A stretch of 37,349 nucleotides of DNA, taken from positions 1-37,349 of the IMG/VR virus record IMGVR_UViG_3300048029_000432. One strand, written 5' to 3'. The position numbers were made by a program, and so were the translations under genes. The notes below the pieces were generated by a model. The model made no database searches, was not told the DNA's origin, and was given only the letters and a program-made list of their open reading frames with translations. Shown here piece by piece: positions 1-37,349 of this stretch (position 1 is its first letter; every line of letters begins with the position of its first letter). Source of the stretch: a virus.

Positions 1-112
1 TGCGCATGCCGTCGAGCGTGACGCTAACGTCCAGCAACATAACTGTGCCAGCGCCGCAGACTGTAGGAAGCGGGGAACACTACTACGAGTTCACCAGCGG
101 CAGCGGCACCGT
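1..112 (+). repeat. 112-bp exact direct repeat, copy A
   Basis: These 112 bases are identical to 35968-36079. The match stops after GGCACCGT, where this copy continues AACAGT and the other GCAGGT, with patchy similarity to about base 185. It lies inside fibre coding sequence and sets a circle length of about 35,967 bp. Confidence 0.95.
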
Positions 113-194
113 AACAGTCAACATCGCGGCTGGCTCGCCTCTCCCCACGACCGGCGTGCTAAGCCTCGCGGAACACTACCAAGGAACCCTGTAA
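1..194 (+). CDS. Tail fibre, C-terminal end only (partial)
   Basis: The reading frame is open from the window edge and ends at the TAA at 192-194. The first 112 bases equal 35968-36079 inside the large fibre gene, in the same frame, so this is the C-terminal end of a glycine-rich tail fibre whose body lies at 33753-36079. After residue SGTV the two versions differ but remain homologous, ending in AEHYQGTL here and AEHYQSKI at the right end. In a circular genome this is the natural end of the fibre gene. It is followed after two bases by the lysis genes. The ATG at position 6 is an internal methionine, not a start. Confidence 0.85.
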   Translation, partial: RMPSSVTLTSSNITVPAPQTVGSGEHYYEFTSGSGTVTVNIAAGSPLPTTGVLSLAEHYQGTL

Positions 195-196
195 CC

Positions 197-433
197 ATGA
201 CCGACGACGACAAACTGCGCCAAGTGGCCGCCGAAGCGGTCGAACAAACGCTCCGCCGCATGGGCCTCGACCCCGACGACGCGCAGACCGCTGCCGACAT
301 ACACGACCTCAAGGGTCTGTTGGGCGCGTGGCGGGCGACGAAGCGCACCGTCTGGCAGACCGTCGCGCGCGTGGCGACCGTCGCGGCGCTGGGCGCGCTG
401 GTCGCCGGTGCGTTTTTTCAGATTCGTAACTAA
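197..433 (+). CDS. Small membrane protein of the lysis region
   Basis: This 78-residue protein has a charged, helical N-terminal part (residues 1-50, rich in Asp, Arg and Glu) and one C-terminal membrane segment at about residues 54-73 (VARVATVAALGALVAGAFF) followed by a short tail. It starts three bases after the fibre stop codon, with AAGGA upstream. Small proteins of this shape are common between tail fibre and holin in podoviruses. The position suggests a role in lysis, for example as a holin partner, but no catalytic feature is visible. The same place in the block at the right end is taken by a different protein with the same layout (36381-36629). Confidence 0.75.
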   Translation: MTDDDKLRQVAAEAVEQTLRRMGLDPDDAQTAADIHDLKGLLGAWRATKRTVWQTVARVATVAALGALVAGAFFQIRN

Positions 434-453
434 CGACTACAAAGGAGTACACC

Positions 454-675
454 ATGAACGAGACAACGAACCAAACCAAGCCGTGGTGGCAATCCCGCAC
501 TGTGCTGGGCGTTATCGTGATGGCCGTGTCGGGCGTCGCAGCGCAGACTGGTGCCGCCGAAGTCACCGCTGCGGACCAAGCCGCGATTGTAGACTGGCTG
601 CTGAACGCCGTTGGCGTCGGTGCGGCTGGCTTTGCGATTTGGGGGCGCGTGGTGGCGAACCGGCGCATTGGCTAA
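454..675 (+). CDS. Putative holin
   Basis: The product has 73 residues. Holins open the inner membrane at the end of infection. A polar N-terminus with KPWWQSRTV leads into a first membrane segment (about residues 16-33), then an acidic linker and a second segment (about 47-65) ending in FAIWGRVVANRR. A clear AAAGGAG ribosome site lies upstream of the ATG at 454. The second holin-like gene at 36175-36381 shares KPWWQS(R/K)TV and AIWGR, so the two are diverged members of one family. The stop overlaps the start of the next gene (TAATG). Assignment rests on size, membrane layout and the spanin genes that follow. Confidence 0.75.
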   Translation: MNETTNQTKPWWQSRTVLGVIVMAVSGVAAQTGAAEVTAADQAAIVDWLLNAVGVGAAGFAIWGRVVANRRIG

Positions 676-899
676 TGCAGACCGTACTGCAAATCGTCCG
701 TATCATTGCTGGGCTGCTAATCCAATCGGGATTGGCATTCCGCAGTGGTCGCCGCGCCGCAGAAAAGGCGCAACGCAAGTCCGACCTGGAGGCCGCTGCC
801 AATGCCCTGGACGCGAAAGCCGACGCTGCGTCTGCCGATCTGCTTAGCCGCGACGATCTTATTGACCAGCTGCGGAACAAAGACCGACTCCGCAAGTGA
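675..899 (+). CDS. Inner-membrane spanin (Rz-like)
   Basis: This 74-residue protein has an N-terminal signal anchor (about residues 3-22, VLQIVRIIAGLLIQSGLAF) and then a charged, alanine-rich helical segment likely to form a coiled coil in the periplasm. This is the layout of i-spanins, which join an outer-membrane lipoprotein partner to fuse the two membranes during lysis of Gram-negative cells. Its start overlaps the holin stop by one base. The main support is the lipoprotein partner gene that begins inside it in another frame (802-1032). The sequence itself shows no family-specific motif. Confidence 0.72.
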   Translation: MQTVLQIVRIIAGLLIQSGLAFRSGRRAAEKAQRKSDLEAAANALDAKADAASADLLSRDDLIDQLRNKDRLRK

Positions 900-1032
900 C
901 CTGCCGCCACCGTCGCTGTCTGTAGCGTGCGTCGTGTTCGAGCCGATCCCCGGCAGTACAGACGACACAACTGAAACGCTCCGGGCTATCGTAGCCCATA
1001 ACGCCGCCTGGGACGCTATCTGCGATGACTGA
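802..1032 (+). CDS. Outer-membrane spanin lipoprotein (Rz1-like), nested start
   Basis: The 76-residue product starts with a lipoprotein signal peptide. A basic N-terminus and hydrophobic stretch end in the lipobox LTSC, giving a lipidated Cys24. The mature part is short and proline-containing (DLPPPS) and ends with a pattern seen in many Rz1-like proteins (FEPIPGS, then HNAAW and a late Cys). I chose the ATG at 802 because GGAGG lies about nine bases upstream. A start at 745 would add an unlikely basic extension. The first 98 bases overlap the i-spanin gene in a different frame, as in classical Rz/Rz1 pairs. Confidence 0.82.
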   Translation: MPWTRKPTLRLPICLAATILLTSCGTKTDSASDLPPPSLSVACVVFEPIPGSTDDTTETLRAIVAHNAAWDAICDD

Positions 1033-1237
1033 CGACGACCTGTACCCCGTGTCCGAAACCGAACACGACGACGAAGCAGAAGCGGACTTGATACGTGGAA
1101 ACACTATCGCGGAAATGGTCGAAAACGCCGTGCTGCTGGGGCTGGACTTAGAAATGAACGCCTACATTGGGTCCGAAATGGTCAAAATCACGGTCACAAC
1201 GTACCAAACGGACCAAGACGCGGCAGTGATGCACTAG
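1025..1237 (+). CDS. Small acidic protein of unknown function
   Basis: I do not recognise this 70-residue protein. It is acidic in its first third (TDDD, EHDDEAEAD) and ends in a short beta-rich region. No membrane segment or signal is visible. The ATG overlaps the last eight bases of the o-spanin gene, so it is probably translated with the lysis cassette. It is the last gene before the terminator at 1247-1278 and thus the likely end of the late transcript. Confidence 0.6.
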   Translation: MTDDDLYPVSETEHDDEAEADLIRGNTIAEMVENAVLLGLDLEMNAYIGSEMVKITVTTYQTDQDAAVMH

Positions 1238-1246
1238 AAACGACTA

Positions 1247-1278
1247 GGGCCGGAGCGTTGCAGCGTCCCGGCCCTTTT
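1247..1278 (+). terminator. Rho-independent terminator after the lysis genes
   Basis: GGGCCGG at 1247-1253 pairs with CCGGCCC at about 1267-1274, with further pairing inside (GCGTTGCAGCG region), and is followed by TTTTCC. It lies ten bases after the last lysis-region stop codon and should end the late transcript. The opposite strand lacks a T-run after the hairpin. Confidence 0.85.
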
Positions 1279-1376
1279 CCTTGGCTTTACCGGCGGTTTG
1301 CTATGGACAGCACGCCAGAAAGCTATGGGTTGCAGCTAAGTGTCTGGAAACAGTACGTTACAAACTACCAGACTAA

Positions 1377-1607
1377 TTAACTATGAAGCGTCACAAGTCC
1401 TGAAGCGGACGTGACGTGTTCAAGTTCGCGTTCGCCGTAGGCGCGCATCGCGGTGACAAAAGCCAGCAGTGTTTGCCGGTCCACGACGCCAAGGAACTCG
1501 ATTTCGTAATGGCCGCCTTCGGTGTCGAGAATCTGGACACCCGCTTCGGCGGCTGCGGTTTCCAGCGTTTGGGTGAAACGGTCGATGGGATCAAGTTGCT
1601 GAAGCAT
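1377..1607 (-). CDS. Hypothetical protein downstream of integrase
   Basis: The 76-residue product begins MLQQLDPIDRF and has an acidic, mixed alpha/beta composition without membrane segments or known motifs. It reads as a normal soluble protein. The start overlaps the end of the upstream gene (1591-1788) by 17 bases, inside a run of six G on the coding strand that could act as its ribosome site. It is the last minus-strand gene of the integrase unit and faces the lysis genes. Function unknown. Confidence 0.55.
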   Translation of the reverse strand: MLQQLDPIDRFTQTLETAAAEAGVQILDTEGGHYEIEFLGVVDRQTLLAFVTAMRAYGERELEHVTSASGLVTLHS

Positions 1608-1788: not shown

Positions 1789-1940
1789 TTCAATTTAACT
1801 CCCAATTAGCGCCGCCCTTATTAGCGGCCGTTGCTGTGTTCCACATACCGCACCGTGCAGCAAGGTTTTTTCGGTAAAATTTGCACGTTACAGGCAGAAA
1901 CACATATTTACGTGAGAACATTAACGGAACAACGTCCCCA
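1789..1940. other. AT-rich gap behind the integrase, candidate attP region
   Basis: This 152-bp stretch has no convincing gene. It is richer in A and T than its surroundings, especially at 1865-1922. It lies directly downstream of the integrase stop, a usual place for a phage attachment site. I see no match to a tRNA 3' end, so the core site cannot be named. A short hairpin (GCCGC/GCGGC near 1812-1830) lacks a T-run. Confidence 0.25.
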
Positions 1941-3227
1941 CTACACCGCGTCCACGACGCTGCGGCCCATGTCGGGCCGGTACGCGGCATAGACGGTTTC
2001 GATGATCTGCGTGGACTGGCCCGTCACCTGCCCGATCAGATACGGCGACAGACCCGCTGCAACGGCCCAGGTAATGTACGACCGCCGGAACGCGTGGCTG
2101 TGCAGTCGGTCGGCCATGTCCTGCACCCGTGCGTCCGAGTCGCCCTGCATCTTGGCTCGCAGCCGCCGCAGCTTGCTGCCGATATGCTCCCGCTGCCACA
2201 GCACGTTAGCGTCGCTTGGTTCGCGTTCTGCTGCAGCGCGTTCGAGTATCGGCCGCAAATCCGGCGCGATAGGGACGCTGGGACGGCGTTTTGACGTCTC
2301 GCGGATACCGCTGGGCTGCAGGTGTATGACGTTCAGCGCTAGGTCCACGCGATCCCACGTCAGGTCCATTAGAGCGCCGACACGCGCCCCGGTGTAACGC
2401 ACCAGCCAAAGGTACAGTTCCAGCGCAGACAGGCGGCTGCGGTCGCCATAGTAGCCACCACTGGTGCGCCATGCTTCCGCGTAGTCCAGCACCGTCGCCC
2501 AGTCGTCTTTGGTGAGCACCAGCTTGTCGTGGACCACCGGCCTTGCGACGTCGAACAGTGGCGGCGCGTCGGCTTTACTGATCCGCTTGGTTTTGACCGC
2601 GTGCCGGACAGCGGCGTTCCAGACAACGGCGTCGAGCCGGAAACTGTTGTGGCTGATCGAGCGCAAGCGCTGCTCCCGATACGCGGCCAAGTCGGCGTCG
2701 GTTACGTGGCGCACCGGCTTGTCGTCGGTAAGCGCGTCCCGCAGTTTGCCGATGATGCTGCGATAGCTGGCACGGGTGGCGTAGGACGCGGTTGCGAGGC
2801 GCTGGTCGAAGTATTCCGACAGCAGCTGCTGCACGGTGAACTGCGCGACGGACGTGCCAAGGCCCAGCTCCGCAAGGCGCTGCTCCATCCGGCGCGGCAC
2901 TTCGTCCGGGTCGCGGGTGCCAAGGGACCGCCGCAGCAGTTTTGGCGGGTCGCCGACGTAGACGTGCAGCATGTAGAGGTCGCGGTTGGGGCAGAGCTTA
3001 ACGTGCGGCCGCTGCTGGTCCCGTATCGCGATGAGCTTGCGCTTGCGTTCTTCGGCGGCGCGGCGTGTCGCGTGCTTGCCGACACTGTCGTAGAACAGCA
3101 CAAGCGCGCCGCTAGTGTCGCGGTCGTACCAGATCACCCGCAGGTCGTCGGTAGTGCCGGGCAAATGTTTGACGTCGAAAGCCTCGGCCGTGGCGCTGGG
3201 GCGGTCGGCTGTCTCATAGCTTAACAT
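1941..3227 (-). CDS. int: Tyrosine-family site-specific integrase
   Basis: This 428-residue recombinase would insert and excise the phage genome at an attachment site. The N-terminal part (to about residue 230) contains arm- and core-binding regions. The C-terminal catalytic domain shows Arg282 in TGARVG, Lys313 in TSKRR, His378 and Arg381 in HAFR, and the nucleophile Tyr413 in ETVYAAY. The position usually held by His or Trp after the conserved Gly is Gln404 (VTGQS), which is unusual. I chose the ATG at 3227 over the upstream one at 3320 because AGAGGA lies at proper distance and the longer version only adds sequence overlapping the repressor gene. It overlaps that gene by 14 bases, so both are probably made from one transcript. 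Confidence 0.9.
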   Translation of the reverse strand: MLSYETADRPSATAEAFDVKHLPGTTDDLRVIWYDRDTSGALVLFYDSVGKHATRRAAEERKRKLIAIRDQQRPHVKLCPNRDLYMLHVYVGDPPKLLRRSLGTRDPDEVPRRMEQRLAELGLGTSVAQFTVQQLLSEYFDQRLATASYATRASYRSIIGKLRDALTDDKPVRHVTDADLAAYREQRLRSISHNSFRLDAVVWNAAVRHAVKTKRISKADAPPLFDVARPVVHDKLVLTKDDWATVLDYAEAWRTSGGYYGDRSRLSALELYLWLVRYTGARVGALMDLTWDRVDLALNVIHLQPSGIRETSKRRPSVPIAPDLRPILERAAAEREPSDANVLWQREHIGSKLRRLRAKMQGDSDARVQDMADRLHSHAFRRSYITWAVAAGLSPYLIGQVTGQSTQIIETVYAAYRPDMGRSVVDAV

Positions 3228-3624
3228 CTTGGAAGTCCTCTTTCTTCTTCCGTTCGCCGAACCGGTTGTTGGCTTCGAGAACCTCATGAAGCATCTGGTC
3301 GTCCACCGGCATGCCGCCAATGCGCAGGATGAACCAACCTGGCTGGCCGTCTACGGGCTGGAAATTGATGCTGCTGGTCGCGACAGAAACCACCGTATCA
3401 TCGAAGGATTCGGGGCAGAGTTCGCGCGGGTCCATTTGCAGGAAGTCGGCGAGCGTTTGCAGCCTACGGCCGCGTGGTAGGTGCAGGCCGCGCGCCCAGC
3501 CGGATATGGCCTGTTGCGACAGCCCGGTGCTGCGCTGGATTTGCAGTTGCGTTAGATCGCGGTCGCGCATGATGCGCTTGAGGCGGGCCGCAAAAGCAGC
3601 CGCGCGTTGCGGATCAAATGCCAT
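3214..3624 (-). CDS. XRE-family repressor, probable lysogeny regulator
   Basis: The 136-residue protein has an N-terminal helix-turn-helix domain (about residues 10-65; LTQLQIQRSTGLSQQAIS) of the Cro/CI type. The C-terminal half is mixed beta structure, and I see no LexA-type Ser-Lys protease domain, so RecA-driven self-cleavage is not supported. I chose ATG 3624 because GGGAG lies eight bases upstream. The longer start at 3687 would overlap the promoter. It is cotranscribed with the integrase, a common lysogeny arrangement, and has a sigma70-like promoter and a palindrome in its leader. Alternatively it could be a Cro-like regulator of integration only. Confidence 0.72.
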   Translation of the reverse strand: MAFDPQRAAAFAARLKRIMRDRDLTQLQIQRSTGLSQQAISGWARGLHLPRGRRLQTLADFLQMDPRELCPESFDDTVVSVATSSINFQPVDGQPGWFILRIGGMPVDDQMLHEVLEANNRFGERKKKEDFQDVKL

Positions 3625-3657
3625 GGTAGTGACTCCCACTATGTTGCAGTGCTCACG

Positions 3658-3673
3658 GAGCGTTTTGCCGCTC
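3658..3673. promoter_or_regulatory. Palindrome in repressor leader, candidate operator
   Basis: GAGCG and CGCTC form an inverted repeat around TTTTGC. It lies between the promoter at 3693-3721 and the repressor start, so it could serve autoregulation. Its centre shares GCGTTTTGCC with the operator at 12596-12612. Position and symmetry are seen; binding is inferred. Confidence 0.35.
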
Positions 3674-3692
3674 TCTTGATTGCACAAAACAA

Positions 3693-3721
3693 CATTTAGG
3701 CGCGCCAGCGTGACGCGTCAA
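3693..3721 (-). promoter_or_regulatory. Promoter for repressor and integrase
   Basis: On the minus strand TTGACG (3716-3721) and TAAATG (3693-3698) are separated by 17 bases, close to a sigma70 consensus. Transcription would start near 3686 and read into the repressor gene at 3624. Confidence 0.55.
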
Positions 3722-3729
3722 CAATTTAA

Positions 3730-3990
3730 CTAAGAACCAGCCGGTAAATCGCGAAACCCGTTAATCGCCGCAGCTACCAGCGGCCTACGCGACCGGGCGT
3801 GCAGCTCCAGCACCAGCAGTTCGCGGGCGGGTATATCACTGCCCGGCGTATAATCAAGCACACCGGCGATTTCCGCTTCGATAGCAGGGCAGACGTGTTC
3901 GACGGGCTGCTGCGCGAGGTCGCTGGCGTCGAGGTACTTGCGGAGCCGGGTGACGAGCGGGTCGGTGCTGTTTGCGATGCGTGGGGTCAT
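3730..3990 (-). CDS. Small protein downstream of methyltransferase
   Basis: The 86-residue product starts at an ATG overlapping the methyltransferase stop (ATGA), so it is likely translated by coupling. A start at 4032 would extend it into methyltransferase coding sequence without benefit. It is helical, with a leucine- and arginine-rich C-terminal part (LLVLELHARSRRPLV). It may work with the methyltransferase or be an independent accessory gene. No family recognised. Confidence 0.55.
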   Translation of the reverse strand: MTPRIANSTDPLVTRLRKYLDASDLAQQPVEHVCPAIEAEIAGVLDYTPGSDIPARELLVLELHARSRRPLVAAAINGFRDLPAGS

Positions 3991-5069
3991 GGGCGTAGCT
4001 CCGTAAACAGCCGCACGCGGTCCAGCACCCAACCGATAACCGGCACGGCCATGCTGTTGCCCAGCGCCTTGTATCGCGGGCCGTCTGCGGCGGGCTTGCC
4101 GTGACGGTACGGGATCAGCGTGAAGTCGTCAGGGAAACCCTGCAGTCGCTCGCATTCGCGTGGCGTCAAGCGGCGCACTGTTAGGCCGTCCGTGACCCCG
4201 TTTTGCCTGCGGCTGCCATTGTGTGCATCAAGCGTTGCGTGAGTGTCGCCGATACGAACGCCAGACTGCGACGACTGGAACGCCGCGACCCCCGGAACCT
4301 TCGTCGTGCTAAGTGTCGGCGTGATTGCGTCGCTGGCGCTTAGGCTTTGGCCCGCGCTATTGTTCGCACCGAAGCAAATCAAGTTATAAGCCTCGTCACC
4401 GGCTGGACCGCCTGTGCCTTTGGCCCATTTGCTTGTTACAGTTCCGACGACGCGCCCTTGGTCAATGCCGCCTCCAGAATAGGGGGCAGTTTCTTCCCGC
4501 GCTTCTCTGCTCGGCGGAGTATCCCCGCACAGGCCCGCTGGCTCAAACAGTACCGCCGCAGGTGGTCGCCAGTCGTCTCCAAGGTGGCCGACAGCAAACA
4601 CGCGACGGCGTCGCTGTGCCACTCCGGCATATTGAGCGTCCAGGATTCGCCACGCGCCCGAATACCCGCAGACTTCCATTTGGTCGAGGAAGGCAGCGAA
4701 GTCGTCCCCTCCGCCGCTGCTAAGCAAACCAGGGACATTTTCGAAGACGAGCCAGCGGGGCTGTAACTGCTGACAAATTCGCAAAGTGACGAGGGCCAAG
4801 TTGCCGCGCGGGTCATCCAGTCCGAGACGTTTTCCGGCGACGCTGAATGACTGACAGGGGCTTCCGGCGACAAGAACGTCAATTGGTCCGTGCTGCTTGG
4901 CTCGTTCAATAAAGTCATCTGCCGTTACGTCTCCTAGGTTGGGTGTGCCGTGGTGGTGGGCGAGGACCGCGCTGGGGAACGGCTCGATTTCCGCGTGCCA
5001 TACCCATTCGATGTCTGGCGCTGCGATTTCTGGTGCGCCTATGCCGCTAAACAGCGTCGCGCCTCTCAC
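3987..5069 (-). CDS. DNA (cytosine-5) methyltransferase, orphan
   Basis: This 360-residue enzyme would transfer a methyl group from S-adenosylmethionine to cytosine C5 in a short DNA target. Visible motifs in order: motif I LFSGIGAPE near the N-terminus, catalytic Cys72 in GSPCQSFS (motif IV), ENVPG with Glu110 (motif VI), QRRRRVF (motif VIII), a variable target-recognition stretch, and YKALGNSMAVPV (motif X). I chose GTG at 5069, which overlaps the preceding stop (GTGA) and places motif I at the usual distance. No restriction endonuclease gene lies nearby, so the likely role is protection of phage DNA from host restriction, or regulation. Target sequence cannot be read from the protein. Confidence 0.92.
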   Translation of the reverse strand: MRGATLFSGIGAPEIAAPDIEWVWHAEIEPFPSAVLAHHHGTPNLGDVTADDFIERAKQHGPIDVLVAGSPCQSFSVAGKRLGLDDPRGNLALVTLRICQQLQPRWLVFENVPGLLSSGGGDDFAAFLDQMEVCGYSGAWRILDAQYAGVAQRRRRVFAVGHLGDDWRPPAAVLFEPAGLCGDTPPSREAREETAPYSGGGIDQGRVVGTVTSKWAKGTGGPAGDEAYNLICFGANNSAGQSLSASDAITPTLSTTKVPGVAAFQSSQSGVRIGDTHATLDAHNGSRRQNGVTDGLTVRRLTPRECERLQGFPDDFTLIPYRHGKPAADGPRYKALGNSMAVPVIGWVLDRVRLFTELRP

Positions 5070-11049: not shown

Positions 11050-11427
11050 CTAGGGTGCGGCGGCGGAGTTACTCGCGCGCAGAATTGTTGTTGGTAGTGG
11101 CGGGCAGCACTTTGTTGCTTCGCGGAGGCACTCGTTTGCGACTTCGTTCCAGTATTTGTCGCCGCTGTCAGAAAACCCCAGCTCAATGCACCAGAGGCTA
11201 TCGACATAATCTTTAAGCCAGCCGTCACACTCCGCAGAAATTACAAGGCCACAAAAGCACCAGTCGCCTTTCTGCCAGCGTGCAATGTCCGTCTCATCGT
11301 AACAGTCACAGTCGTCTGGGCGGCTATCGTTGTCGTACTCAATGCGCGCCGTGTACGTGACGCCAGCAATTTCAACGCTGATTGAATCGCCAGGCTGCAG
11401 GTCGTCTCTGAAGGTTTCTTTAAACAT
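11050..11427 (-). CDS. Cysteine-rich acidic protein with read-through tail
   Basis: The 125-residue product starts at an ATG with GGGAG eight bases upstream. The first part is beta-rich (SISVEIAGVTYTARIEYDND), followed by clustered cysteines (CDCYDE, WCFCG, CECLREATKCC pattern), which could bind a metal. No family recognised. Its last 18 or so residues (PLPTTILRASNSAAAP) are encoded by the intergenic repeat that in the two neighbouring copies lies after a stop codon. The original C-terminus was therefore probably near the CC pair, and the stop has been lost here. It lies between ArdA and the tiny membrane protein. Confidence 0.6.
   Translation of the reverse strand: MFKETFRDDLQPGDSISVEIAGVTYTARIEYDNDSRPDDCDCYDETDIARWQKGDWCFCGLVISAECDGWLKDYVDSLWCIELGFSDSGDKYWNEVANECLREATKCCPPLPTTILRASNSAAAP
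11053..11098 (-). repeat. Intergenic repeat copy 1 (diverged)
   Basis: On the coding (minus) strand this copy keeps CCAACAACA, then GTAACTCCG and CCGCACCC of the repeat also found at 11442-11489, 12030-12071 and 12279-12320. Here it is translated as the tail of the gene ending at 11050. Confidence 0.55.
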
Positions 11428-11441
11428 GTCATTAGCTCCCA

Positions 11442-11489
11442 GGGTGCGGCGGGCCGCCGGTAAGACGGCACACCGGTTTGTTATTGGCA
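11442..11489 (-). repeat. Intergenic repeat copy 2 (diverged)
   Basis: Located just after the ArdA stop and before the next ribosome site. It shares AACAAACCGG at the stop-codon side and CCGCCGCACCC at the other side with copy 1, but its middle differs and forms its own hairpins (CCGGT/ACCGG and GGCGG/CCGCC). Confidence 0.45.
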
Positions 11490-11491
11490 GG

Positions 11492-12001
11492 TTACGCCGT
11501 GAAGATGAAACAGCCGCTAGGGCCGTCTATGACGGTGTAGTCATGGCGCAAGTCGCGAGCGTGCGCGTCGTAGTCGAAATAATACCGCGCTGGCTCTGGG
11601 ACGTCGTGCAGCATCAGCTCGTCGGCCTGCTGGTCCGCAAAGTCTTGGAACGTGTCGGCCCGGTAGCAGCTCTCCGCGCGGTCAACTACGCTGTCCAGCC
11701 CTTCGCCGTAAAACGCGCCATAAGCAGCGGCAAAAGCCTCTTGGTCGTCGCAGCGCTCGACCGCCTCGACAAATTCGCACAGCGTCGCAATCGACTCATA
11801 TTCGCCGAACGGGACGGCCATATTGAGCGACGTATCATAGTCGGTGAAAAAGTGTTCCTCGGCTCCGGGCGCTGGGCTATCGGCAAGCACGGCCGCAATG
11901 GCGTCGCGCAGGTCGTCTGGGTCGGATGTTACCTCGACCCAGCGGCCGTGCAGGTGGCCGTTATTGTACGCGGCGAGGCATGTCACAAAAGTTTTAAGCA
12001 T
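11492..12001 (-). CDS. ardA: Antirestriction protein ArdA
   Basis: The 169-residue acidic protein matches the ArdA family, elongated DNA mimics that block type I restriction enzymes by occupying their DNA-binding surface. Diagnostic features are the N-terminal AAYNNGHLHGRWVEV, the pattern D.L..AI..VL followed by EEHFFTDYD, an acidic central EY..IATLCEFVEAVE, and an alternating helical C-terminal half rich in Asp and Glu. Its length matches the family. I chose ATG 12001 because GGGGGA lies about nine bases upstream. The frame upstream of it runs through an intergenic repeat. It would protect incoming phage DNA, complementing the phage methyltransferase. Confidence 0.9.
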   Translation of the reverse strand: MLKTFVTCLAAYNNGHLHGRWVEVTSDPDDLRDAIAAVLADSPAPGAEEHFFTDYDTSLNMAVPFGEYESIATLCEFVEAVERCDDQEAFAAAYGAFYGEGLDSVVDRAESCYRADTFQDFADQQADELMLHDVPEPARYYFDYDAHARDLRHDYTVIDGPSGCFIFTA

Positions 12002-12029
12002 TGGTAGATTCCCCCATGTTGGTCGGTGT

Positions 12030-12252: not shown

Positions 12253-12278
12253 TTTTCTATTCTCCGTTTTGGGGTTGC

Positions 12279-12623: not shown

Positions 12624-12821
12624 ATGACACCTGAACAACTACGCAACGCACGCCAAGCGCTGGGCCTGACTGGTGTACAGCTGGCCGCCGTCCTGGGCGT
12701 CGATGCACGCACTTATCGCCGCTATGAGTTGGCAGAAACGCCGATTCCTAAAGTGGCCGCCCTTGCCGTGCGGCTGCTACTGCTAACCGACCCGGAGCGC
12801 TGGCCCGGCCATGACGGATGA
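12624..12821 (+). CDS. Small XRE regulator
   Basis: The 65-residue protein is almost entirely a helix-turn-helix domain (TPEQLRNARQALGLTGVQLA, recognition helix VDARTYRRYE), followed by a leucine-rich helix. Small regulators of this type are frequent in phages of GC-rich proteobacteria. It lies beside operators O1 and O2 and probably binds them, controlling both the ArdA unit and its own operon. It has no ribosome site upstream and may be translated from a leaderless transcript. It overlaps the next gene by 11 bases. Confidence 0.75.
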   Translation: MTPEQLRNARQALGLTGVQLAAVLGVDARTYRRYELAETPIPKVAALAVRLLLLTDPERWPGHDG

Positions 12822-13374
12822 CAACGCGACGCCGACCGGCGGCCTGACACCGGACGAACTGGCCGATGCTCAGCGCCTAAGCGGCGTCGGGTGTACGCAG
12901 GAACAGATTGCCCAATTTTTGGGCATGACGGCGGCCCGATTCCAATCACGTCTCGAAAACACACCTGATGGGCGGGCGACTCTCGCTAGGTCGCGGATTG
13001 GCGCGTCGGCCAGCGTGGCGAACAGCCTGTACAAGCGCGCCACCGAGGACGGCGACACGGCAGCGGCGAAATTCTGGCTTGAACGCATGGGCGGCCCGCA
13101 ATGGCGCGGCACAGAGCAGCAGACCAATATAAACGTGTCACTCACCGGCGCGTTGCGCGACCTGGGCCGCGTTATTGACGGCGAAGCGCACGAAACCGGA
13201 CACCGGCCGCCTATCGAGCCGAACATGGCGCGCGGATTTATTGAGCCGGATCAGTCACTTAGCGGCGACCCGGCCGTGGAATCGCGCCTTGCCAGCAGCA
13301 AGAGGTACATCGTCAGGGACGCGCTGGCCGTGGTGGACGCCTTGGCCGCCGACGACGACGACCCCGACCCCTAG
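12811..13374 (+). CDS. Terminase small subunit candidate
   Basis: The 187-residue protein has a helix-turn-helix near the N-terminus (GCTQEQIAQFLGMTAARFQSR), then a helical stretch (ASVANSLYKRATEDGDTAAA) and KFWLERMGGPQWRG, the pattern of phage small terminases of the type that carry an N-terminal HTH and a FWL..R.P..WR motif. Small terminases recognise the packaging site and load the large subunit. The C-terminal end is acidic (ADDDDPDP). It lies about 1.6 kb before the large subunit, separated by regulators, which is unusual but seen in mosaic phages. Confidence 0.7.
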   Translation: MTDDNATPTGGLTPDELADAQRLSGVGCTQEQIAQFLGMTAARFQSRLENTPDGRATLARSRIGASASVANSLYKRATEDGDTAAAKFWLERMGGPQWRGTEQQTNINVSLTGALRDLGRVIDGEAHETGHRPPIEPNMARGFIEPDQSLSGDPAVESRLASSKRYIVRDALAVVDALAADDDDPDP

Positions 13375-14893: not shown

Positions 14894-14933
14894 GCCCCGG
14901 CGGTTCCCACATTGGCCGTCGGGGCATTTTTTT
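14894..14933 (+). terminator. Strong terminator just before the large terminase gene
   Basis: GCCCCGGCGG (14894-14903) pairs with CCGTCGGGGC (14916-14925) with one wobble pair, followed by ATTTTTTT. It ends only 17 bases before the terminase ATG at 14951, whose GGAGG lies inside this gap, so late transcription must either read through or start very near. Confidence 0.85.
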
Positions 14934-14950
14934 ACCGGAGGTCCGCCGCC

Positions 14951-16462
14951 ATGGCTAAGCCCCGCAAGCCCAAAGCCACCGCACAGCCGACCGCTCCTGC
15001 GCCTGTACCGGCAGAACCGGCCGCCCCGGCCGCCCCGGCCGCCGCGCTGCCAGCGCTGGATCAGCTGACCGACGAACAGCGCGCCCTGCTGCGGCTACGC
15101 GAAGACCCAGCGCTGTTTGTGCGGACCATCATTGGCGCGACCCCGCAGCGGTGGCAACGCGAGGCGCTAGAAGCAATCCGCGACAACGACCGCGTAGCGA
15201 TCAAGTCGGGGCATGGCGTTGGCAAGACGGCGTTCCTGTCGTGGGTGCTGCTGTGGTGGCTGTGTACGCACTACCCGGTCAAAGCGGCCTGTACGGCCAA
15301 CACGGCCAGCCAGCTTGGCGACGTACTGTGGCCCGAAGTAGCGCGCTGGGCGCGGCAGATGCACCCCGCGTTTAAGGAGCAGTTGGAGTTCCGCAGCGAC
15401 AAAATCTCGCTACGCGGCGGCGGCGAATCCTACGCAGTGGCTCGTACCAGTCGGCGGGATTCCCCCGAATCTCTGCAAGGGTTCCATTCCGAAAATATGC
15501 TGTTCATCCTAGATGAAGCGTCGGGCATTCCTGATATTATCTTCGAAGTCGGGCAGGGGTCGCTATCCACGCCGGGCGCTAAAATCGTCATGTGTGGCAA
15601 CCCAACCCGCAGCAGCGGGTATTTCTACGACGCGTTCAACAAAAACGTAGATCGCTGGGCCACGATGACGGTGTCATGCGCCGACGCCGATTACGTCCGT
15701 CTTGGCTTTATCGAAGAAATGCGCGAGCAGTACGGCGAGGATTCCAACCAGATGCGGGTCCGCGTCTACGGGCTGTTCCCCGAGGCGGACGATGACACGA
15801 TCATACCCTTACACTTGGTTGAAGCTGCGCTCACGCGAGACGTGGAACCTATACAGGGCATGCGACCGGTATGGGGTCTCGACGTTGCGCGTTATGGCAG
15901 CGACCGGACTGCTCTAGCCAAACGACGCGGCAACAGCTTGGCCGAACCGATCAAGGCGTGGCAGGGCAAAGACCTGATGGAAATCTGCGGCATCGTGCTG
16001 GAAGAATTCGACGCCTGCAACTACGACGACCGCCCCGCCGAAATACTGGTAGACGTGATTGGCCTTGGCGCTGGCGTCGTGGACCGCCTCAAGGAAATGG
16101 ACTTCGTGCCGGTACGCGGGATCAACGTCGCCGAGTCCGCCGCGCTGTCACAGAAGTACCTACGCCTGCGCGACGAACTGTGGTTCCAGTGCCGCGAGTG
16201 GCTAGAGCAGCGCGATTGCAGCCTGCCCAAAGACGACGGCGTACTGCAGGCCGAACTAACCGCGCCACGGTTCAAGTTCCAGTCGAACGGTAAACTCAAG
16301 GTAGAGTCGAAGGAAGAACTGAAACGCCGTGGTCAGCGCAGCCCTGATTTGGCCGATGCTCTGATGCTGACGTTTGCCTCCACCGCAGCCAAGGCGGGTA
16401 GCGGGAGACACCGTTCCTATGGTAAGACATTATCTTACGGCAACGGGCAACAATACGTCTGA
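14951..16462 (+). CDS. terL: Terminase large subunit
   Basis: The 503-residue motor packages DNA into proheads. After a Pro/Ala-rich N-terminal arm (residues 10-35) come the ATPase domain with Walker A SGHGVGKTA (about 86-94) and Walker B LFILDE (Asp188, Glu189), a motif III-like MCGNPTR, and an RNase H-fold nuclease with GLDVARYGSD (Asp311), LVDVIGLG and SPDLADAL carrying further acidic residues. I chose ATG 14951 because GGAGG precedes it; the longer frame runs through the terminator. It is unlike the T7-type terminase at 36997 and probably packages by a headful mechanism, matching the circular arrangement. Confidence 0.93.
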   Translation: MAKPRKPKATAQPTAPAPVPAEPAAPAAPAAALPALDQLTDEQRALLRLREDPALFVRTIIGATPQRWQREALEAIRDNDRVAIKSGHGVGKTAFLSWVLLWWLCTHYPVKAACTANTASQLGDVLWPEVARWARQMHPAFKEQLEFRSDKISLRGGGESYAVARTSRRDSPESLQGFHSENMLFILDEASGIPDIIFEVGQGSLSTPGAKIVMCGNPTRSSGYFYDAFNKNVDRWATMTVSCADADYVRLGFIEEMREQYGEDSNQMRVRVYGLFPEADDDTIIPLHLVEAALTRDVEPIQGMRPVWGLDVARYGSDRTALAKRRGNSLAEPIKAWQGKDLMEICGIVLEEFDACNYDDRPAEILVDVIGLGAGVVDRLKEMDFVPVRGINVAESAALSQKYLRLRDELWFQCREWLEQRDCSLPKDDGVLQAELTAPRFKFQSNGKLKVESKEELKRRGQRSPDLADALMLTFASTAAKAGSGRHRSYGKTLSYGNGQQYV

Positions 16463-16796: not shown

Positions 16797-18782
16797 ATGC
16801 TCGACCACGAGGAAATCCGCGCCCGTGTAGGTGCCGAACTAGACGCTGCGATAGGCTACAGCGACAGCGAACTGTCCGCAGACCGTATCGAAGCCACCGA
16901 GTTCTATCTTGGCAAGCAGTTCAACGCCGTGCCGGATGGCAAGTCGTCTATCGTGGCGACCGAAGTGGCGGACGTGGTCGAACACCTTATGTCGTCGCTG
17001 CTGGAAGTGTTCATGCGCTCCGGCGAAATCTTCCGTTTCCTGCCACGGCACCCGGACGACGCCAGCAAAGCGGAAGCTGCGACCGTGCTGGTCAACAGCG
17101 TCTTCGCCTCGCAGAACAACGGCTACCTGATCCTTAGCGACCTGATCAAAGACGCGCTGCTGTACAAGACCGGCGTAGCGCGCGCGTTCTTTGACACTGA
17201 CGTGACTTATGCGGTCGAAACCTACGAGGGACTGACCGAACTCGACGTAGCTGCATTGGCCGATGATCCAGACGTCGAAGTGCTGGAAGCCGTGTCGATT
17301 AGCACGGACGCCGAACCAGCGCTGTTTGAAACCTTCGACGTACAGCTGCGCCGCACCCGCCGAGACAGCCGCATTAAGATCGAGAACGTCGCCCCGGAAG
17401 ACTTCCTGTTCAGCCCGCAGGCCACGTCGGTCGAAGACGCTACGTTCTTGGCTATGCGAACGTACCAGACAGTCGGCGACCTTGTCTCGCAGGGCTACGA
17501 CCGCGACGAGGTTGAGGCCCACGTTGGCCTTGGCGAAGGTTTTGACGAGCAGGAAACGCAAGTACGCCACGACGAAATCGACGGCGGCAGCACACACAAC
17601 TACGCCCTGCGCAACAACGAACTGGTCCGCGTTGTCGAATCCTACATGCCGCTGGATATGCACGAAACCGGCATTCCGACGCTGCATAAGGTGCTGACCA
17701 TCGGCCAGTCCAACCACGTTCTGGACGTCGAACCCGTAGACAACGCTCCGTTTGTGTGCGCGACCCCAATCCGCGTCCCGCACCGGCTTGTTGGCCGCAG
17801 CGTCGCTGAAATGGTCACGGACATTCAGCGCGTGAAGTCCGTCGCCCTGCGCGGCGTGCTGGACAACCTGTACCTGACCAACGACGCCCGCGTTGCGGTT
17901 GTAGAAGGCCGCGTGAACCTTGACGACATGCTGCAGTCTCGCCCCGGCGGTATCGTGCGCATGGACGCGCCGGGCATGGTGCAGCCGCTGCCAGTGCCGC
18001 AAGTTGGCCCGCAGGGCATGTCGCTGCTTAGCTACATGGATCAGGTCCGCGACCAGCGCACCGGCAGCAAAAACCTGCACCTCGACCCGGACGCACTGCA
18101 GTCCACGACCGCAGCTGGCGTCAACGCCGCGATCCAAGGCGGGCAGGCCAAGGCGCTTATGATTGCGCGGACCATCGCCGAAACCGGCATCCGGCCCATG
18201 GCGCAGCTGCTGCTGCAGTTGGCGATCAAGCACCTCGACGGGCCGCAACAGGTCCGTGTAGGCGGCGACATGTTTGAAGCCATTGACCCGGCCAGCATTG
18301 ACGTGTCGTTCGACGTAGACATCGACGTTGGCCTTGGCACCGGCCGCGACGCAGAGCGCATGGCCGCGCTACAGCAGATCGCTGGGCTACAGCGCGAAAT
18401 CCTGCAGGAGCTGGGCCTCGAAAACCCTGTCGTATCGGTCGAGCAGTACCTATCCACGGTACGGCGGCTTGGCATGATGGCGGGTATCAAAGACGTCGAT
18501 ACAATGTTCGCGACGGACCAGCAGTTGGCCGAGTTCCGTCAGATGCAGCAGCAGCAGCCGCCCAAGGAAGATCCGGAAGTCGCCCAGCGCCGGTCTGAGT
18601 TCGAGGCGGAAATCCAGCTGAAGCGCGAACAGCAAATCGCCGACCACCAGCTGGAACGCGAAAAGCTCGAAGCTGAACTGGCCCTCAAGCAGCAGGAAAT
18701 GTCGGTCGAGCTTGAACTACGCCGCGCGAAACTCGCCATGGGCGACGCGGCTGTATCCACGAATATCCCAGGCGTTGCGTGA
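16797..18782 (+). CDS. Portal protein (head-tail connector)
   Basis: The 661-residue protein forms the ring at the head vertex through which DNA enters and leaves. It resembles long portals of P22-like and marine podoviruses: an N-terminal helical part with ATEFYLGKQF and VADVVEHLMSSLLE, a beta-rich stem region (ENVAPEDFLFSPQA), a long central helical domain (DIQRVKSVALRGVLDNLYL), and a charged coiled-coil C-terminus (residues about 580-650, rich in Gln, Glu and Lys). Position after the terminase and before scaffold and capsid agrees. Its last bases overlap the next GTG start (GTGA). Confidence 0.9.
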   Translation: MLDHEEIRARVGAELDAAIGYSDSELSADRIEATEFYLGKQFNAVPDGKSSIVATEVADVVEHLMSSLLEVFMRSGEIFRFLPRHPDDASKAEAATVLVNSVFASQNNGYLILSDLIKDALLYKTGVARAFFDTDVTYAVETYEGLTELDVAALADDPDVEVLEAVSISTDAEPALFETFDVQLRRTRRDSRIKIENVAPEDFLFSPQATSVEDATFLAMRTYQTVGDLVSQGYDRDEVEAHVGLGEGFDEQETQVRHDEIDGGSTHNYALRNNELVRVVESYMPLDMHETGIPTLHKVLTIGQSNHVLDVEPVDNAPFVCATPIRVPHRLVGRSVAEMVTDIQRVKSVALRGVLDNLYLTNDARVAVVEGRVNLDDMLQSRPGGIVRMDAPGMVQPLPVPQVGPQGMSLLSYMDQVRDQRTGSKNLHLDPDALQSTTAAGVNAAIQGGQAKALMIARTIAETGIRPMAQLLLQLAIKHLDGPQQVRVGGDMFEAIDPASIDVSFDVDIDVGLGTGRDAERMAALQQIAGLQREILQELGLENPVVSVEQYLSTVRRLGMMAGIKDVDTMFATDQQLAEFRQMQQQQPPKEDPEVAQRRSEFEAEIQLKREQQIADHQLEREKLEAELALKQQEMSVELELRRAKLAMGDAAVSTNIPGVA

Positions 18783-21030: not shown

Positions 21031-21042
21031 TCGGGGAACGGG

Positions 21043-21067: not shown

Positions 21068-21078
21068 TTCTCTACAAA

Positions 21079-33363: not shown

Positions 33364-33375
33364 GGAGCACAGACA

Positions 33376-33750: not shown

Positions 33751-33752
33751 CC

Positions 33753-36164
33753 GTGGGCAAGCGCGCGAAACACTACTTTGGCGGGATCGTTGGCGCGGAC
33801 CCGCTCGTAAGCGGCACACCACGCACCAGCGGCGTCTTCAACCTCGGCGCGCTTTCCGCCGACAACGCCTTTGAAGCGCCCAGCCTCGACCTGAACTTCG
33901 ACGGGCAGGCCAGCAGCTTCACCCGTGCTACGACAAGTCCGACTGCCGCGAAGGCCAACGGCGACCAGCTCGCGACCGACATCGTTAGCTGCACACGGTC
34001 CACCACGGCGACGTATATGGGTAGCAACGGCCTAATCCAGACAGCAGCAGTAAACACCCCCCGCGTCGAGTACGACGCCTCGGGCAACCCGCTGGGGCTG
34101 CTGGTCGAGGAGCAGCGGACGAACCTCTATCCCGGCACTACTCCAAGCAATACGGCAGCGGTTACGTTCACGACGAACCAAGGGGCGGCTCCTGACGGCA
34201 CCAACACCGCTATTAAAGCGACTGAAGACAGCGCTCTGGGCGAGAAAAACGCAAACACCGCACTGTTTTCCGTCACGAGCGGTACGCAGTACACTGCGTC
34301 GCTCTACGCTAAGCCTGCTGGACGCACAGGCATCCGACTGCTCATGCCGGGAGCCGCATTTGGTAACAATAATGTCGCTACCTACGACCTCCAAGGCAAC
34401 GGCTCCATAATCGAATGGCCCGGGTCTGACACTCCAGACGCCACGACCATTACACCCGCTGGGAATGGGTGGTATCGCATTAGCATCACCAGCACAGCGG
34501 CTAGTACCGCAAGTACGTTCTTGCAGATGGTCATCGACGATGACGGGACTGATACCAACACGTCTTACCAAGGCGACGGCAGCAGCGGACTGCTGATATG
34601 GGGCATCCAGAGCGAGGAAGGCGCTGGCCCGACTAGCTACATCCCCACGACCTCTGGCAGTGTCACCCGCGCAGCCGACGAGATCACGTTGGCGACGAGT
34701 GCGTTTGGGTTTGAAGAGACCACGGGGTCGGTCCTTGCGGATGTAACCATCGACCACGCGACAGGCAGTTATGAGCGCGTTTTTGAGTTTGGCACGTCAA
34801 ATACCAACACAGATCGCGTTTTCATGTTTCTCGACGCCGCCAACAACAACGACATTGAGGCTCGGATCAACACTGGCGGCACAGCCAATGTCGCAGCAGA
34901 AAATGTGATTGTTGCAAGCCCTACGTTCCCGCACACTAGCAAACTAGCGATGAGCTACGCTGCGGGCAACTACATGACCGCCGATGACGGAGCGCTGGTC
35001 AGCATGACAGCGGGCGCATACAACCCGGGAGGCAGTAAGCCGCAACTGCGGCTGGGAGGACACCAGCAAACCAGTTTGACCATGAACGGCCATATTCGCC
35101 GCTTCACCTACTGGCCGCGTGCGCTCTCCGACGCCAGCCTCGCCAGCTACACCGGCACGAACCCGCCGACTATCGACCTTGACCGGCCCACGCGGCGGTG
35201 GGGCGGGATGACCGGGCGGTCGCTGGTGGCGAGCACGGCGGCACCCACCACAGCTTCCATCGACTACCTAGTGGTCGGCGGCGGTGGTGCGGGCGGTAGC
35301 AAACACGCTGGCGGCGGCGGAGGTGGTGGCGGTGTGCTTAGCGGCACAACGACCTCGGTCTCCGATGGGGCCAGCCTTGACGTTACCGTCGGTTCTGGCG
35401 GCGTAGGCAGCTCCTCCACTGGCGGCACAGACGGCGACGATAGCGTACTGGACTATGGCACGACGATTACTGCTCTCGGCGGCGGTCGTGGTGGCTCAGA
35501 GGGTTTCCTCGGAGGCCAGAACGGCGGCTCCGGCGGTGGCGGTGCAGGCGATACCCAGTCCAACCGCAACCTTGGCGGCGCTGGCGAAGCTGGTCCCCCG
35601 CGGCAAGGCTACGATGGTGGCACTGGTACTGGATTTGCCTTTTCAAACCGGTACGGCAATGGAGCTGGTGGCGGCGGAGCCGGTAGCGCGGGCCAAAGTG
35701 CCACCAACAGCGACGGCGGTGACGGCGGCGACGGCGTGACAAGTTCGATAACCGGCTCTGCGGCCTACTATGGCGGCGGCGGCGGGGGCGGCTACTATTC
35801 TGGCGGCGGTGCTCCCGGTTCTGGCGGCCAAGGCGGCGGCGGCGATGGTGTTAGCTCAAACGCAGGCAACAACGGCCAAGCAAATACCGGCGGTGGCGGA
35901 GGCGGCTCCGGCGGTACCGGCGGCACTGCACGGATTGGCGGCTCTGGCGGCTCCGGCGTGGTGATACTGCGCATGCCGTCGAGCGTGACGCTAACGTCCA
36001 GCAACATAACTGTGCCAGCGCCGCAGACTGTAGGAAGCGGGGAACACTACTACGAGTTCACCAGCGGCAGCGGCACCGTGCAGGTAAACATTGCGGCAGC
36101 GTCCACTAACGTCCCCACGACCGGCGTGCTCACCCTCGCGGAACACTACCAAAGTAAAATCTAA
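33753..36164 (+). CDS. Large tail fibre / adhesin with LamG-like and polyglycine domains
   Basis: The 803-residue protein starts with GTG. Its start (YFGGIVGADPLVSG, TSGVFNLG) matches cassette 1 gene C. Residues about 40-480 follow a pattern common in phage fibres with lectin-like beta-sandwich domains (STTATYMG...TPRVEY...LGLLVEEQRTNL, then SVTRAADEI). From about residue 502 the sequence SIDYLVVGGG opens a domain of roughly 240 residues made of long Gly runs and ending SGVVILRMPSS, as in polyglycine adhesins such as the S16 gp38 type. The tip after residue 775 is replaced by a variant relative to 1-194. It is probably the main receptor-binding protein. Confidence 0.8.
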   Translation: MGKRAKHYFGGIVGADPLVSGTPRTSGVFNLGALSADNAFEAPSLDLNFDGQASSFTRATTSPTAAKANGDQLATDIVSCTRSTTATYMGSNGLIQTAAVNTPRVEYDASGNPLGLLVEEQRTNLYPGTTPSNTAAVTFTTNQGAAPDGTNTAIKATEDSALGEKNANTALFSVTSGTQYTASLYAKPAGRTGIRLLMPGAAFGNNNVATYDLQGNGSIIEWPGSDTPDATTITPAGNGWYRISITSTAASTASTFLQMVIDDDGTDTNTSYQGDGSSGLLIWGIQSEEGAGPTSYIPTTSGSVTRAADEITLATSAFGFEETTGSVLADVTIDHATGSYERVFEFGTSNTNTDRVFMFLDAANNNDIEARINTGGTANVAAENVIVASPTFPHTSKLAMSYAAGNYMTADDGALVSMTAGAYNPGGSKPQLRLGGHQQTSLTMNGHIRRFTYWPRALSDASLASYTGTNPPTIDLDRPTRRWGGMTGRSLVASTAAPTTASIDYLVVGGGGAGGSKHAGGGGGGGGVLSGTTTSVSDGASLDVTVGSGGVGSSSTGGTDGDDSVLDYGTTITALGGGRGGSEGFLGGQNGGSGGGGAGDTQSNRNLGGAGEAGPPRQGYDGGTGTGFAFSNRYGNGAGGGGAGSAGQSATNSDGGDGGDGVTSSITGSAAYYGGGGGGGYYSGGGAPGSGGQGGGGDGVSSNAGNNGQANTGGGGGGSGGTGGTARIGGSGGSGVVILRMPSSVTLTSSNITVPAPQTVGSGEHYYEFTSGSGTVQVNIAAASTNVPTTGVLTLAEHYQSKI
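35968..36079 (+). repeat. 112-bp exact direct repeat, copy B
   Basis: Identical to 1-112. It lies in the large fibre gene just before the tip. Sequence beyond it differs from the left-end copy and leads to a T7-like block. Confidence 0.95.
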
Positions 36165-36174: not shown

Positions 36175-36381
36175 ATGTTAGACACCGATAAACCTTGGTG
36201 GCAGTCAAAGACTGTCATCTCGGTCGGGGTCATGATGCTAGGCATGGGCCTCAAGCAACTTGGCTTCGACACAGGCGAACTAGAAACCGATATTACTGCT
36301 CTGGCGCTAGACGGCGCTATGGTAGTGGCGGGTGCTATCGCCATCTGGGGACGCATCACGGCGACTAAAGCCTTGCGCTGA
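36175..36381 (+). CDS. Second holin-like protein (right-end block)
   Basis: The 68-residue protein shares KPWWQSKTV and AIWGR with the holin at 454-675 and has two membrane segments (about residues 14-28 and 46-60) separated by an acidic turn. It lies ten bases after the variant fibre end, preceded by AAGGATAA. In T7 the holin follows the tail fibre in the same way. It overlaps the next ATG by one base. It probably belongs to a T7-like phage rather than to the rest of the genome. Confidence 0.72.
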   Translation: MLDTDKPWWQSKTVISVGVMMLGMGLKQLGFDTGELETDITALALDGAMVVAGAIAIWGRITATKALR

Positions 36382-36629
36382 TGTCCGACCTAAAGATCCC
36401 CGGAGCATCGCCCGACTGGCGAGCCAGAATCCTCAAGCTGGAGTTCCAGACTGAGGCCCACGGCTCCCAGTTATCCAATCTAACCGACAAGACCAACGCT
36501 ATGGCTGACAGCCTAGATTCTATCCAGCGAACCCTAGCGCAGATCCGGTGGATTGCTATCGGTGCTGCGGTGGCTCTGACCGCCAAGGAGATGAACCTCA
36601 TGTCTCTCCTTAGCTTTGTCGGCATATAG
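36381..36629 (+). CDS. XhlA-like small membrane protein
   Basis: The 82-residue protein has a helical, charged N-terminal half (DWRARILKLEFQTEAHGSQL, then MADSLDSIQRTLAQIRW) and one hydrophobic segment at about residues 56-80. This matches haemolysin XhlA-like or related lysis accessory proteins, which carry a cytoplasmic coiled coil and a C-terminal anchor. Its position between holin and small terminase corresponds to accessory lysis genes in T7-like phages. No Rz1-type lipoprotein is seen beside it. Confidence 0.5.
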   Translation: MSDLKIPGASPDWRARILKLEFQTEAHGSQLSNLTDKTNAMADSLDSIQRTLAQIRWIAIGAAVALTAKEMNLMSLLSFVGI

Positions 36630-36742: not shown

Positions 36743-37000
36743 ATGTCCAACACTAAGTCAAAGAAGGCAACTGAGGGCGAACTCAGTGAACTCCACGGCC
36801 TCCTAGCTCGCTTCTTCAAGGGCAAGCTATTGGGTGACCAAGAGTTGACAGCAGCGGAGCTTGGCCAAATCCGCCAGTTCCTAAAAGACAACCATATCGA
36901 AGCCAATGCAGAGCAGAACCCAGACATGCTGGCGATTGCTCAGAAGCTCCCTGAGTTCGAAGACGATGGCTACGACGACACTGAAGGCTCAATGCACTGA
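36743..37000 (+). CDS. T7-like terminase small subunit
   Basis: The 85-residue protein follows the T7 gp18 pattern: a helical start (ELSELHGLLARFFKGKLLG), AAELGQIRQFLKDN in the middle and an acidic end (EFEDDGYDDTEG). GGAGG lies before the ATG. It is directly upstream of a T7-type large terminase, as gene 18 is in T7. It is unrelated to the small-subunit candidate at 12811-13374, so the window has two packaging systems. Lower GC than the main genome supports a different origin. Confidence 0.75.
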   Translation: MSNTKSKKATEGELSELHGLLARFFKGKLLGDQELTAAELGQIRQFLKDNHIEANAEQNPDMLAIAQKLPEFEDDGYDDTEGSMH

Positions 37001-37349
37001 GTACCGACAAGTTAACGGCAGTTAAGAAGGACTTCCGCAAGTTCGTTTACGTCTTGTGGAAGCACCTTGCCCTCCCAGATCCGACCACAATCCAATACGA
37101 CATCGCAGCCTTCTTACAACATGGCCCAAAGCGGTCTATGGTCTCCGCATTCCGAGGGGTCGGCAAAAGCTGGCTCACAAGTGCCTACGTTGTGTGGCTG
37201 CTACTAAATGATCCAGACATCAAGATCCTTGTCGTATCCGCTAGTAAAGACAGAGCGGATGCGTTCAGCGTCTTCGTGAAGCGTATCATCCATGAAGTGG
37301 ACATCTGCCAGCACCTGATCCCCGGCCCCGACCAGCGGTCCTCTAACAT
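36997..37349 (+). CDS. T7-like terminase large subunit, 5' part (partial)
   Basis: About 117 codons are present before the window ends. The frame shows FVYVLWKHLALPDPT, the Walker A region SAFRGVGKSW, then TSAYVVWLLLNDP and KILVVSASKDRADAFSVFVK, all close to T7 gp19. The frame is open only from 36985. The codon aligned with the T7 initiator is CTG (36997-36999) followed by AGTACC, matching the MST start of gp19 except for the first base. No ATG or GTG lies in this position, and the first TTG (37054) would remove conserved sequence. It overlaps the small-subunit stop. Confidence 0.88.
   Translation, partial: MSTDKLTAVKKDFRKFVYVLWKHLALPDPTTIQYDIAAFLQHGPKRSMVSAFRGVGKSWLTSAYVVWLLLNDPDIKILVVSASKDRADAFSVFVKRIIHEVDICQHLIPGPDQRSSN

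What the first reader, a model, noticed from the sequence alone, without database searches (positions are those of the whole stretch)
1..112. Window is a circle of about 35,967 bp plus an alternative end
Bases 1-112 equal 35968-36079 exactly and in frame within the fibre. Joining them completes the fibre and carries the late operon into the lysis genes and a terminator at 1247-1278, a coherent layout. The remaining 1.27 kb is a different continuation from the same fibre tip.
Basis: partly seen in the sequence, partly recalled or inferred. Interest (0 to 1): 0.8.

Follow-up and report, generated by a model that had tools for sequence, protein, structure and literature searches.

The report
Two-phage chimera joined at a fibre
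The record is one circular temperate phage genome plus the start of a different, T7-like phage, most likely joined during assembly through a stretch of tail-fibre gene that both carry, which hints that unrelated phages swap host-recognition parts.

Summary
The circle is supported. Independent contig G003 is a circular permutation of the window that runs from the tail genes through a fibre directly into window base 136 and on to the integrase. L118 and L121 make the same passage, and G001 has the same order and an imperfect near-terminal repeat. The right 1.27 kb is not another end of this genome. It holds a holin-like gene, a T7-type small terminase (gp18) and the start of a T7-type large terminase (gp19), while the circle has its own terminase pair. 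L012 matches it colinearly, 72.7% DNA over 1,242 columns. The contig most likely crossed from a temperate podovirus into a co-sampled T7-like phage inside a shared fibre stretch. Biological residue: two unrelated phages seem to share at least 112 identical fibre bases, next to short fibre "caps" conserved at DNA level in several phage architectures. Fibre exchange is a known kind; no paper with these cap peptides was found. No reads were available, and no independent T7-like contig with the 112 bases was found.

The parts
1..112 (+). Shared fibre stretch R, left copy (37 codons), followed by the circle's own fibre end
   Evidence: Exact match to 35968-36079
113..194 (+). Fibre C-terminus of the temperate phage, with C-cap PTTGVLSLAEHYQGTL
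   Evidence: G003 aligns from window 136 on and also ends in QGTL
197..433 (+). Small gene p197, phrog_10540, function unknown; homologues follow the fibre or the holin in other cap-bearing contigs
454..675 (+). Holin-like gene holA (KPWWQSRTV); weak similarity to the right-end holB
   Evidence: phrog_29088 2e-9, phrog_34682 holin only 0.27; alignment
745..1032 (+). Rz-like spanin
   Evidence: phrog_1275, 7e-12
1025..1237 (+). Small gene p1025, no family; 91-97% in three circle-type relatives
1247..1278 (+). Terminator-like stem and T run that closes the late operon
   Evidence: Conserved base for base in G003; not listed by the generic scan
1941..3320 (-). Tyrosine-type integrase: the circle is temperate
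   Evidence: phrog_1, 1e-29; PF00589, 3.8e-9
12811..13374 (+). Circle's own terminase small subunit
   Evidence: phrog_309, 5e-13
14912..16462 (+). Circle's own terminase large subunit
   Evidence: phrog_2, 2e-51; PF03237, 5e-7
16797..18782 (+). Portal protein
   Evidence: phrog_1216; ten of the 24 loci are 97-99% identical
33753..36164 (+). Tail fibre ORF as assembled: N-cap (RTSGVFNLGAL, 33822), linker (RWGGMTGRSLV, 35196), Gly-rich module, R, right-hand C-terminus
   Evidence: phrog_5939 and PF21722; motif positions
35968..36079 (+). Shared fibre stretch R, right copy: crossover stretch of the chimera
36080..36164 (+). Fibre C-terminus of the T7-like partner, with C-cap PTTGVLTLAEHYQSKI
   Evidence: L012, a T7-like contig, ends in PTTGVLTLAEHYQTKL and aligns from window 36112 on
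36175..36381 (+). Holin-like gene holB of the T7-like partner
   Evidence: 87% in 8 T7-like loci and 39-40% in 3 more, of 21; no family above noise
36381..36629 (+). Small gene p36381 of the T7-like partner
   Evidence: 77-94% in 5 of 21 T7-like loci
36743..37000 (+). T7 gp18-type terminase small subunit (DNA maturase A)
   Evidence: PF11123, 2e-16; phrog_891, 2e-17
37003..37349 (+). Start of a T7 gp19-type terminase large subunit (DNA maturase B), cut by the contig end
   Evidence: phrog_38, 4e-27; 60 related loci, best 88%

Best explanation
The record is a chimeric contig. Its first 35,967 bases are one turn of a circular map of a temperate podovirus whose late operon runs through a tail fibre into holin, spanin and a terminator. 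Bases 36080-37349 come from a different, T7-like phage in the same sample, from its fibre end into its packaging genes. Both phages carry the same stretch R of at least 112 bases in the fibre gene, and the assembler, having gone round the circle, left R by the other phage's exit. Shown: circle gene order in independent contigs, two unrelated packaging gene sets, colinearity of the right end with T7-like contigs, lineage-specific C-termini. Inferred: that the join is an assembly event, that the partner truly carries R, and that R is a recently exchanged fibre module.
For: G003 is a circular permutation of the window with fibre joined directly to window 136-1586, 1795-3989 and on to 20154, at 86-98%. 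L118 and L121 join the late operon to p197; G001 has the same order with an imperfect repeat of about 145 nt at its ends. Of five circle-type contigs none has gp18, gp19 or p36381. Circle TerS/TerL and integrase. Right end gp18/gp19. In 11 of 21 T7-like loci the order holB-(p36381)-gp18-gp19 is kept; L012 is colinear with window 36112-37349 at 72.7%. C-cap endings QGTL (G003) and QTKL (L012) match left and right copy. T7-type RNA polymerase in 3 of 8 T7-like records, 0 of 3 circle-type records. Right end GC 0.546, below the lowest equal-sized circle window, 0.554. Chimeras through shared k-mers are a known assembler fault (passages of PMC7299287).
Against: No reads or pairs. An exact 32-base pattern from R finds no contig in viral contigs, so the partner with R has not been seen on its own (records near the window may be left out). 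No close relative of the whole fibre was found there. The GC margin is small. Five of the 8 T7-like records show no RNA polymerase; they are fragments of 6-24 kb. The crossover could lie further upstream in the fibre.
Confidence: 0.9

Rival explanations
1. A real molecule: a cointegrate or recombinant made by a crossover in R between the two phages, so that the circle really continues into the T7-like genome.
For: A single crossover in R would give exactly body-R-right end and R-left end (inference). R and the C-cap are shared DNA.
Against: Two complete genomes would exceed the headful size; G003, G001, L118 and L121 show the plain circle and no gp18/gp19; none of 21 T7-like loci has integrase, TerL, portal, MCP, p197 or Rz1 matches.
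Confidence: 0.03
2. Strain variation inside one phage species: two populations of the same phage with different gene blocks after the fibre.
For: Both blocks start with a similar C-cap and a related holin.
Against: The right block carries another packaging system than the one the genome already has and matches contigs with no circle core genes.
Confidence: 0.03
3. A fibre-tip switching system (invertase type or retroelement type) with two alternative tips.
For: Two tips share an identical start and differ after it.
Against: No inverted copy; no serine recombinase PF00239; no reverse transcriptase PF00078; the second tip is followed by a foreign packaging module.
Confidence: 0.02
4. A linear genome with direct terminal repeats.
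For: One copy starts at base 1.
Against: The other copy ends 1,270 bases before the right end; G003 is circularly permuted.
Confidence: 0.02

Closest known systems
Tail-fibre gene exchange among unrelated phages (P2, P1, Mu, lambda, T-even; Haggard-Ljungquist et al. 1992 and Montag et al. 1989, seen only as titles in the reference list of PMC3945230)
   Same: Fibre 3' parts shared by phages that are otherwise unrelated, temperate and virulent.
   Different: There the exchange is called ancient and probably invertase-driven (PMC3945230 section 16). Here no invertase is seen in the window, identity is 100% over 112 nt, and the caps are another sequence family.
Chimeric metagenomic contigs through k-mers shared between genomes (PMC7299287, passages)
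   Same: A contig holds sequence of two genomes joined at a shared stretch.
   Different: The shared stretch lies inside a host-recognition gene of two unrelated phages, not in a conserved gene of close strains.
T7-like phages (Autographiviridae), e.g. Limnohabitans phage YIMV22061, for the right end
   Same: Terminase large subunit gp19 preceded by small late genes; DNA 70% over 261 nt.
   Different: Only the fibre end, holin, gp18 and the start of gp19 are present; polymerase and core genes are not in the window.
Short-tailed phages with phrog_1216 portals, e.g. Phage C72C1, for the circle
   Same: Portal (37.5%), stabilisation protein (30%).
   Different: No isolate above 60% identity in the portal; the window adds an integrase and a methyltransferase.

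Membership tests
Circularly mapping temperate podovirus (bases 1-35967) | Gene order closes into a circle in an independent record | tested here: met
   G003 circularly permuted, 31,912 bases, joins fibre to S1; window 20155-21863 lies outside its ends
Circularly mapping temperate podovirus (bases 1-35967) | Integrase | tested here: met
   phrog_1, PF00589
Circularly mapping temperate podovirus (bases 1-35967) | Own portal, terminase and major head protein | tested here: met
Circularly mapping temperate podovirus (bases 1-35967) | Prophage state in a bacterial genome | tested here: inconclusive
   Portal scan of genome contigs: 26 stretches matched a pattern, none confirmed
Autographiviridae (right end) | T7-type gp18 and gp19 after fibre and holin | tested here: met
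Autographiviridae (right end) | Single-subunit RNA polymerase | tested here: inconclusive
   Absent from the window; present in 3 of 8 related T7-like records, the rest fragments
Invertible fibre-tip system | Inverted tips and a serine recombinase | tested here: not met
Diversity-generating retroelement | Reverse transcriptase | tested here: not met
Assembly chimera | Reads do not support the join | not testable with these tools
   No reads held

The most novel reading that the evidence does not exclude
A temperate podovirus and a T7-like phage in one community recently exchanged a fibre receptor module, with short DNA-conserved caps (N-cap, linker, C-cap) acting as homology landing patches that let several unrelated phage architectures swap fibre modules without an invertase; the assembly chimera is a by-product of that traffic.
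Probability: 0.4. Interest if true: 0.7.

Novelty: new member of a known kind. Interest (0 to 1): 0.42.

Why it matters
Practically, the record should be cut at the fibre: as it stands it credits one genome with two packaging systems. Biologically, an assembly crossing inside a fibre gene points to host-recognition DNA shared by a temperate and a T7-like phage. PMC3945230 reports no recent temperate-virulent mosaics among E. coli phages and only an ancient, probably invertase-driven fibre exchange (section 16). Cap-flanked fibre modules would make such traffic countable in metagenomes: search the cap DNA, read what lies on either side.

Tried and rejected
Direct terminal repeat, invertible tips and retroelement: rejected. 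Strain variants of one phage: rejected on the two packaging systems. Exact R pattern in viral contigs: nothing. Whole-fibre relatives in viral contigs: 5 pattern matches, none confirmed, although later fetched contigs match the fibre at 39-44%. Prophage relatives by portal in genome contigs: none confirmed. Isolate phages: no match for the 59-aa cap ORF of L012, holB or p197; the fibre body matches 37 records, all under 60%; gene 33376 matches 6 records. Joining 37349 to 1 as one larger circle: the truncated gp19 frame would run into frame 2, not into the fibre frame 3 (read). Literature: listings gave no description of this cap family; one search found no paper with the three cap peptides.

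Full report
Observation. Bases 1-112 and 35968-36079 are identical and in the same frame. Similarity continues to both stop codons with a sharp fall after base 112, then rises again over the last codons, PTTGVLxLAEHYQ. No 25-mer is inverted.

What the circle is. Family scans give an integrase, a C5 methyltransferase, a RecE-like exonuclease, a primase, a small and a large terminase subunit, a portal, a major head protein, tail proteins and the fibre, and on the left an Rz-like spanin. The gene at 454-675 is only holin-like: its best family is unnamed and the holin match is 0.27.

Is the circle real? Portal relatives in viral contigs: 24 loci, ten of them 97-99% identical. I looked for the window's ends in 14 of those 24 records: 2 of 14 matched 1-2000 and the same 2 of 14 matched parts of 33000-37349; the other 12 did not, most of them short. 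In G003 (31,912 bases) the order is window 21864 ... 33853, another fibre body with the same linker, then window 136-1586, 1795-3989, 5066 ... 20154, so the fibre is joined to the left-end genes in one independent contig. G001 (36,421 bases) has the same lysis-integrase order, another fibre region and an imperfect repeat of about 145 nt at its ends, a circle of about 36,276; its gene before p197 carries no C-cap that I found. Two more contigs, L118 and L121, join the late operon to p197. A fifth carrier, L120, starts 363 nt before its holA and does not reach the fibre.

What the right end is. The protein 36743-37000 is a gp18-type small terminase and 37003-37349 the start of a gp19-type large terminase. 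In 60 related loci I tested the 21 closest, 76-88% identical: 11 of 21 carry holB, 5 p36381 and 17 gp18, and in the 11 with holB the order is holB-(p36381)-gp18-gp19. L012 is colinear with window 36112-37349. None of the 21 matches integrase, TerL, portal, MCP, p197 or Rz1; some match gene 33376 (L008, L014, L018, L021), the cap part of 30505 (L012) or the fibre (L022). Of the circle-type contigs G003, G001, L118, L121 and L064 none matches gp18, gp19 or p36381; three match holB at 34-37%, through their own holA. The T7 late order fibre-holin-18-19 is recalled, not looked up.

How the join most likely arose. R is an exact word that leads both into the temperate C-terminus (QGTL, as in G003) and into the T7-like one (QSKI; L012 has QTKL). 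An assembler that reaches R after a full turn can leave by either exit. Because contigs of one graph overlap at their ends, base 1 need not be the true left limit of the shared stretch; 112 bases is a minimum (inference). The N-terminus of the fibre is that of the temperate lineage (G003 VGKHAKHYFGG..., window VGKRAKHYFGG...), so the crossover lies between 33854 and 36079.

The fibre caps. A search for any codon spelling of PTTGVL[ST]LAEHYQ found 13 contigs. Seven have gp18 after the holin, six of them gp19 as well (L104 = L012, L109, L111, L112, L113, L116; L108 ends before gp19); four (L105, L106, L107, L110) have the holin followed by another fibre-like gene; one (L114) has a p197 homologue and a phrog_3287 gene; L115 ends too early. 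The third group is not fully foreign: L106's large terminase is phrog_38, as the right end's, and its portal phrog_1216, as the circle's. The linker search found 20 contigs, 11 of them from contigs already held and nine new; of the new ones five are T7-like, one circle-type (L121), two resemble the third group and one (L125) is undecided.

DNA-level conservation. Among amino-acid matches between architectures the codon is identical in 426 of 600 C-cap pairs, 252 of 334 linker pairs and 68 of 81 N-cap pairs, against 0.368, 0.31 and 0.343 expected from codon use; in the holins that follow, 508 of 1149 (0.442, expected 0.354). Used were 12 of 16 C-caps (L105, L107, L113 and L116 dropped as copies), 9 linkers and 5 N-caps; L115 counted as its own group. 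Pairs are not independent, and the holin is an imperfect control because it may be older. In L109 the fibre frame stops before the cap, which lies in another frame: a recent insertion or a sequence error. The window's other fibre-like protein, 30505-31647, ends in a worn copy of linker and cap.

Known and new. Fibre exchange among unrelated phages is known (titles seen; PMC3945230 section 16). That paper reports no recent temperate-virulent mosaics in E. coli phages and calls the fibre case ancient and probably invertase-driven. Here no serine recombinase or reverse transcriptase is found. A RecE-like exonuclease could serve homology-driven exchange; this is inference. No held paper contains the cap peptides, within an open-access library only.

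Verdict. Circle right; 'alternative end' is a second phage. As an assembly matter ordinary; as a pointer to fibre-module traffic of moderate interest.

Noticed in passing
3990-5065: The C5 methyltransferase gene is a clean extra block: G003 and G001 both pass from window 3989 to 5066 without it.
   Followed up: partly
1587-1794: About 208 bases between terminator and integrase are missing from G003 and G001 but partly matched in L118 and L120; possibly next to the attachment site.
   Followed up: no
11054-12320: Three copies of a 45-nt repeat (11054, 12027, 12276) in a stretch between primase and terminase genes that varies between relatives.
   Followed up: no
32017-32697: Tandem 117-nt repeats inside the tail gene 31657-33363.
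   Followed up: no
30505-31647: Second fibre-like protein with a worn N-cap and a worn linker plus C-cap, KPTQRWGRQLGRS...NTGVITTTEAYQ.
   Followed up: partly
L012:286-465: A 59-aa ORF before the holin made only of N-cap, linker and C-cap, as if a fibre with its modules removed; no match among isolate phages.
   Followed up: partly
L109:3358-3396: Cap DNA kept outside the fibre's frame.
   Followed up: no
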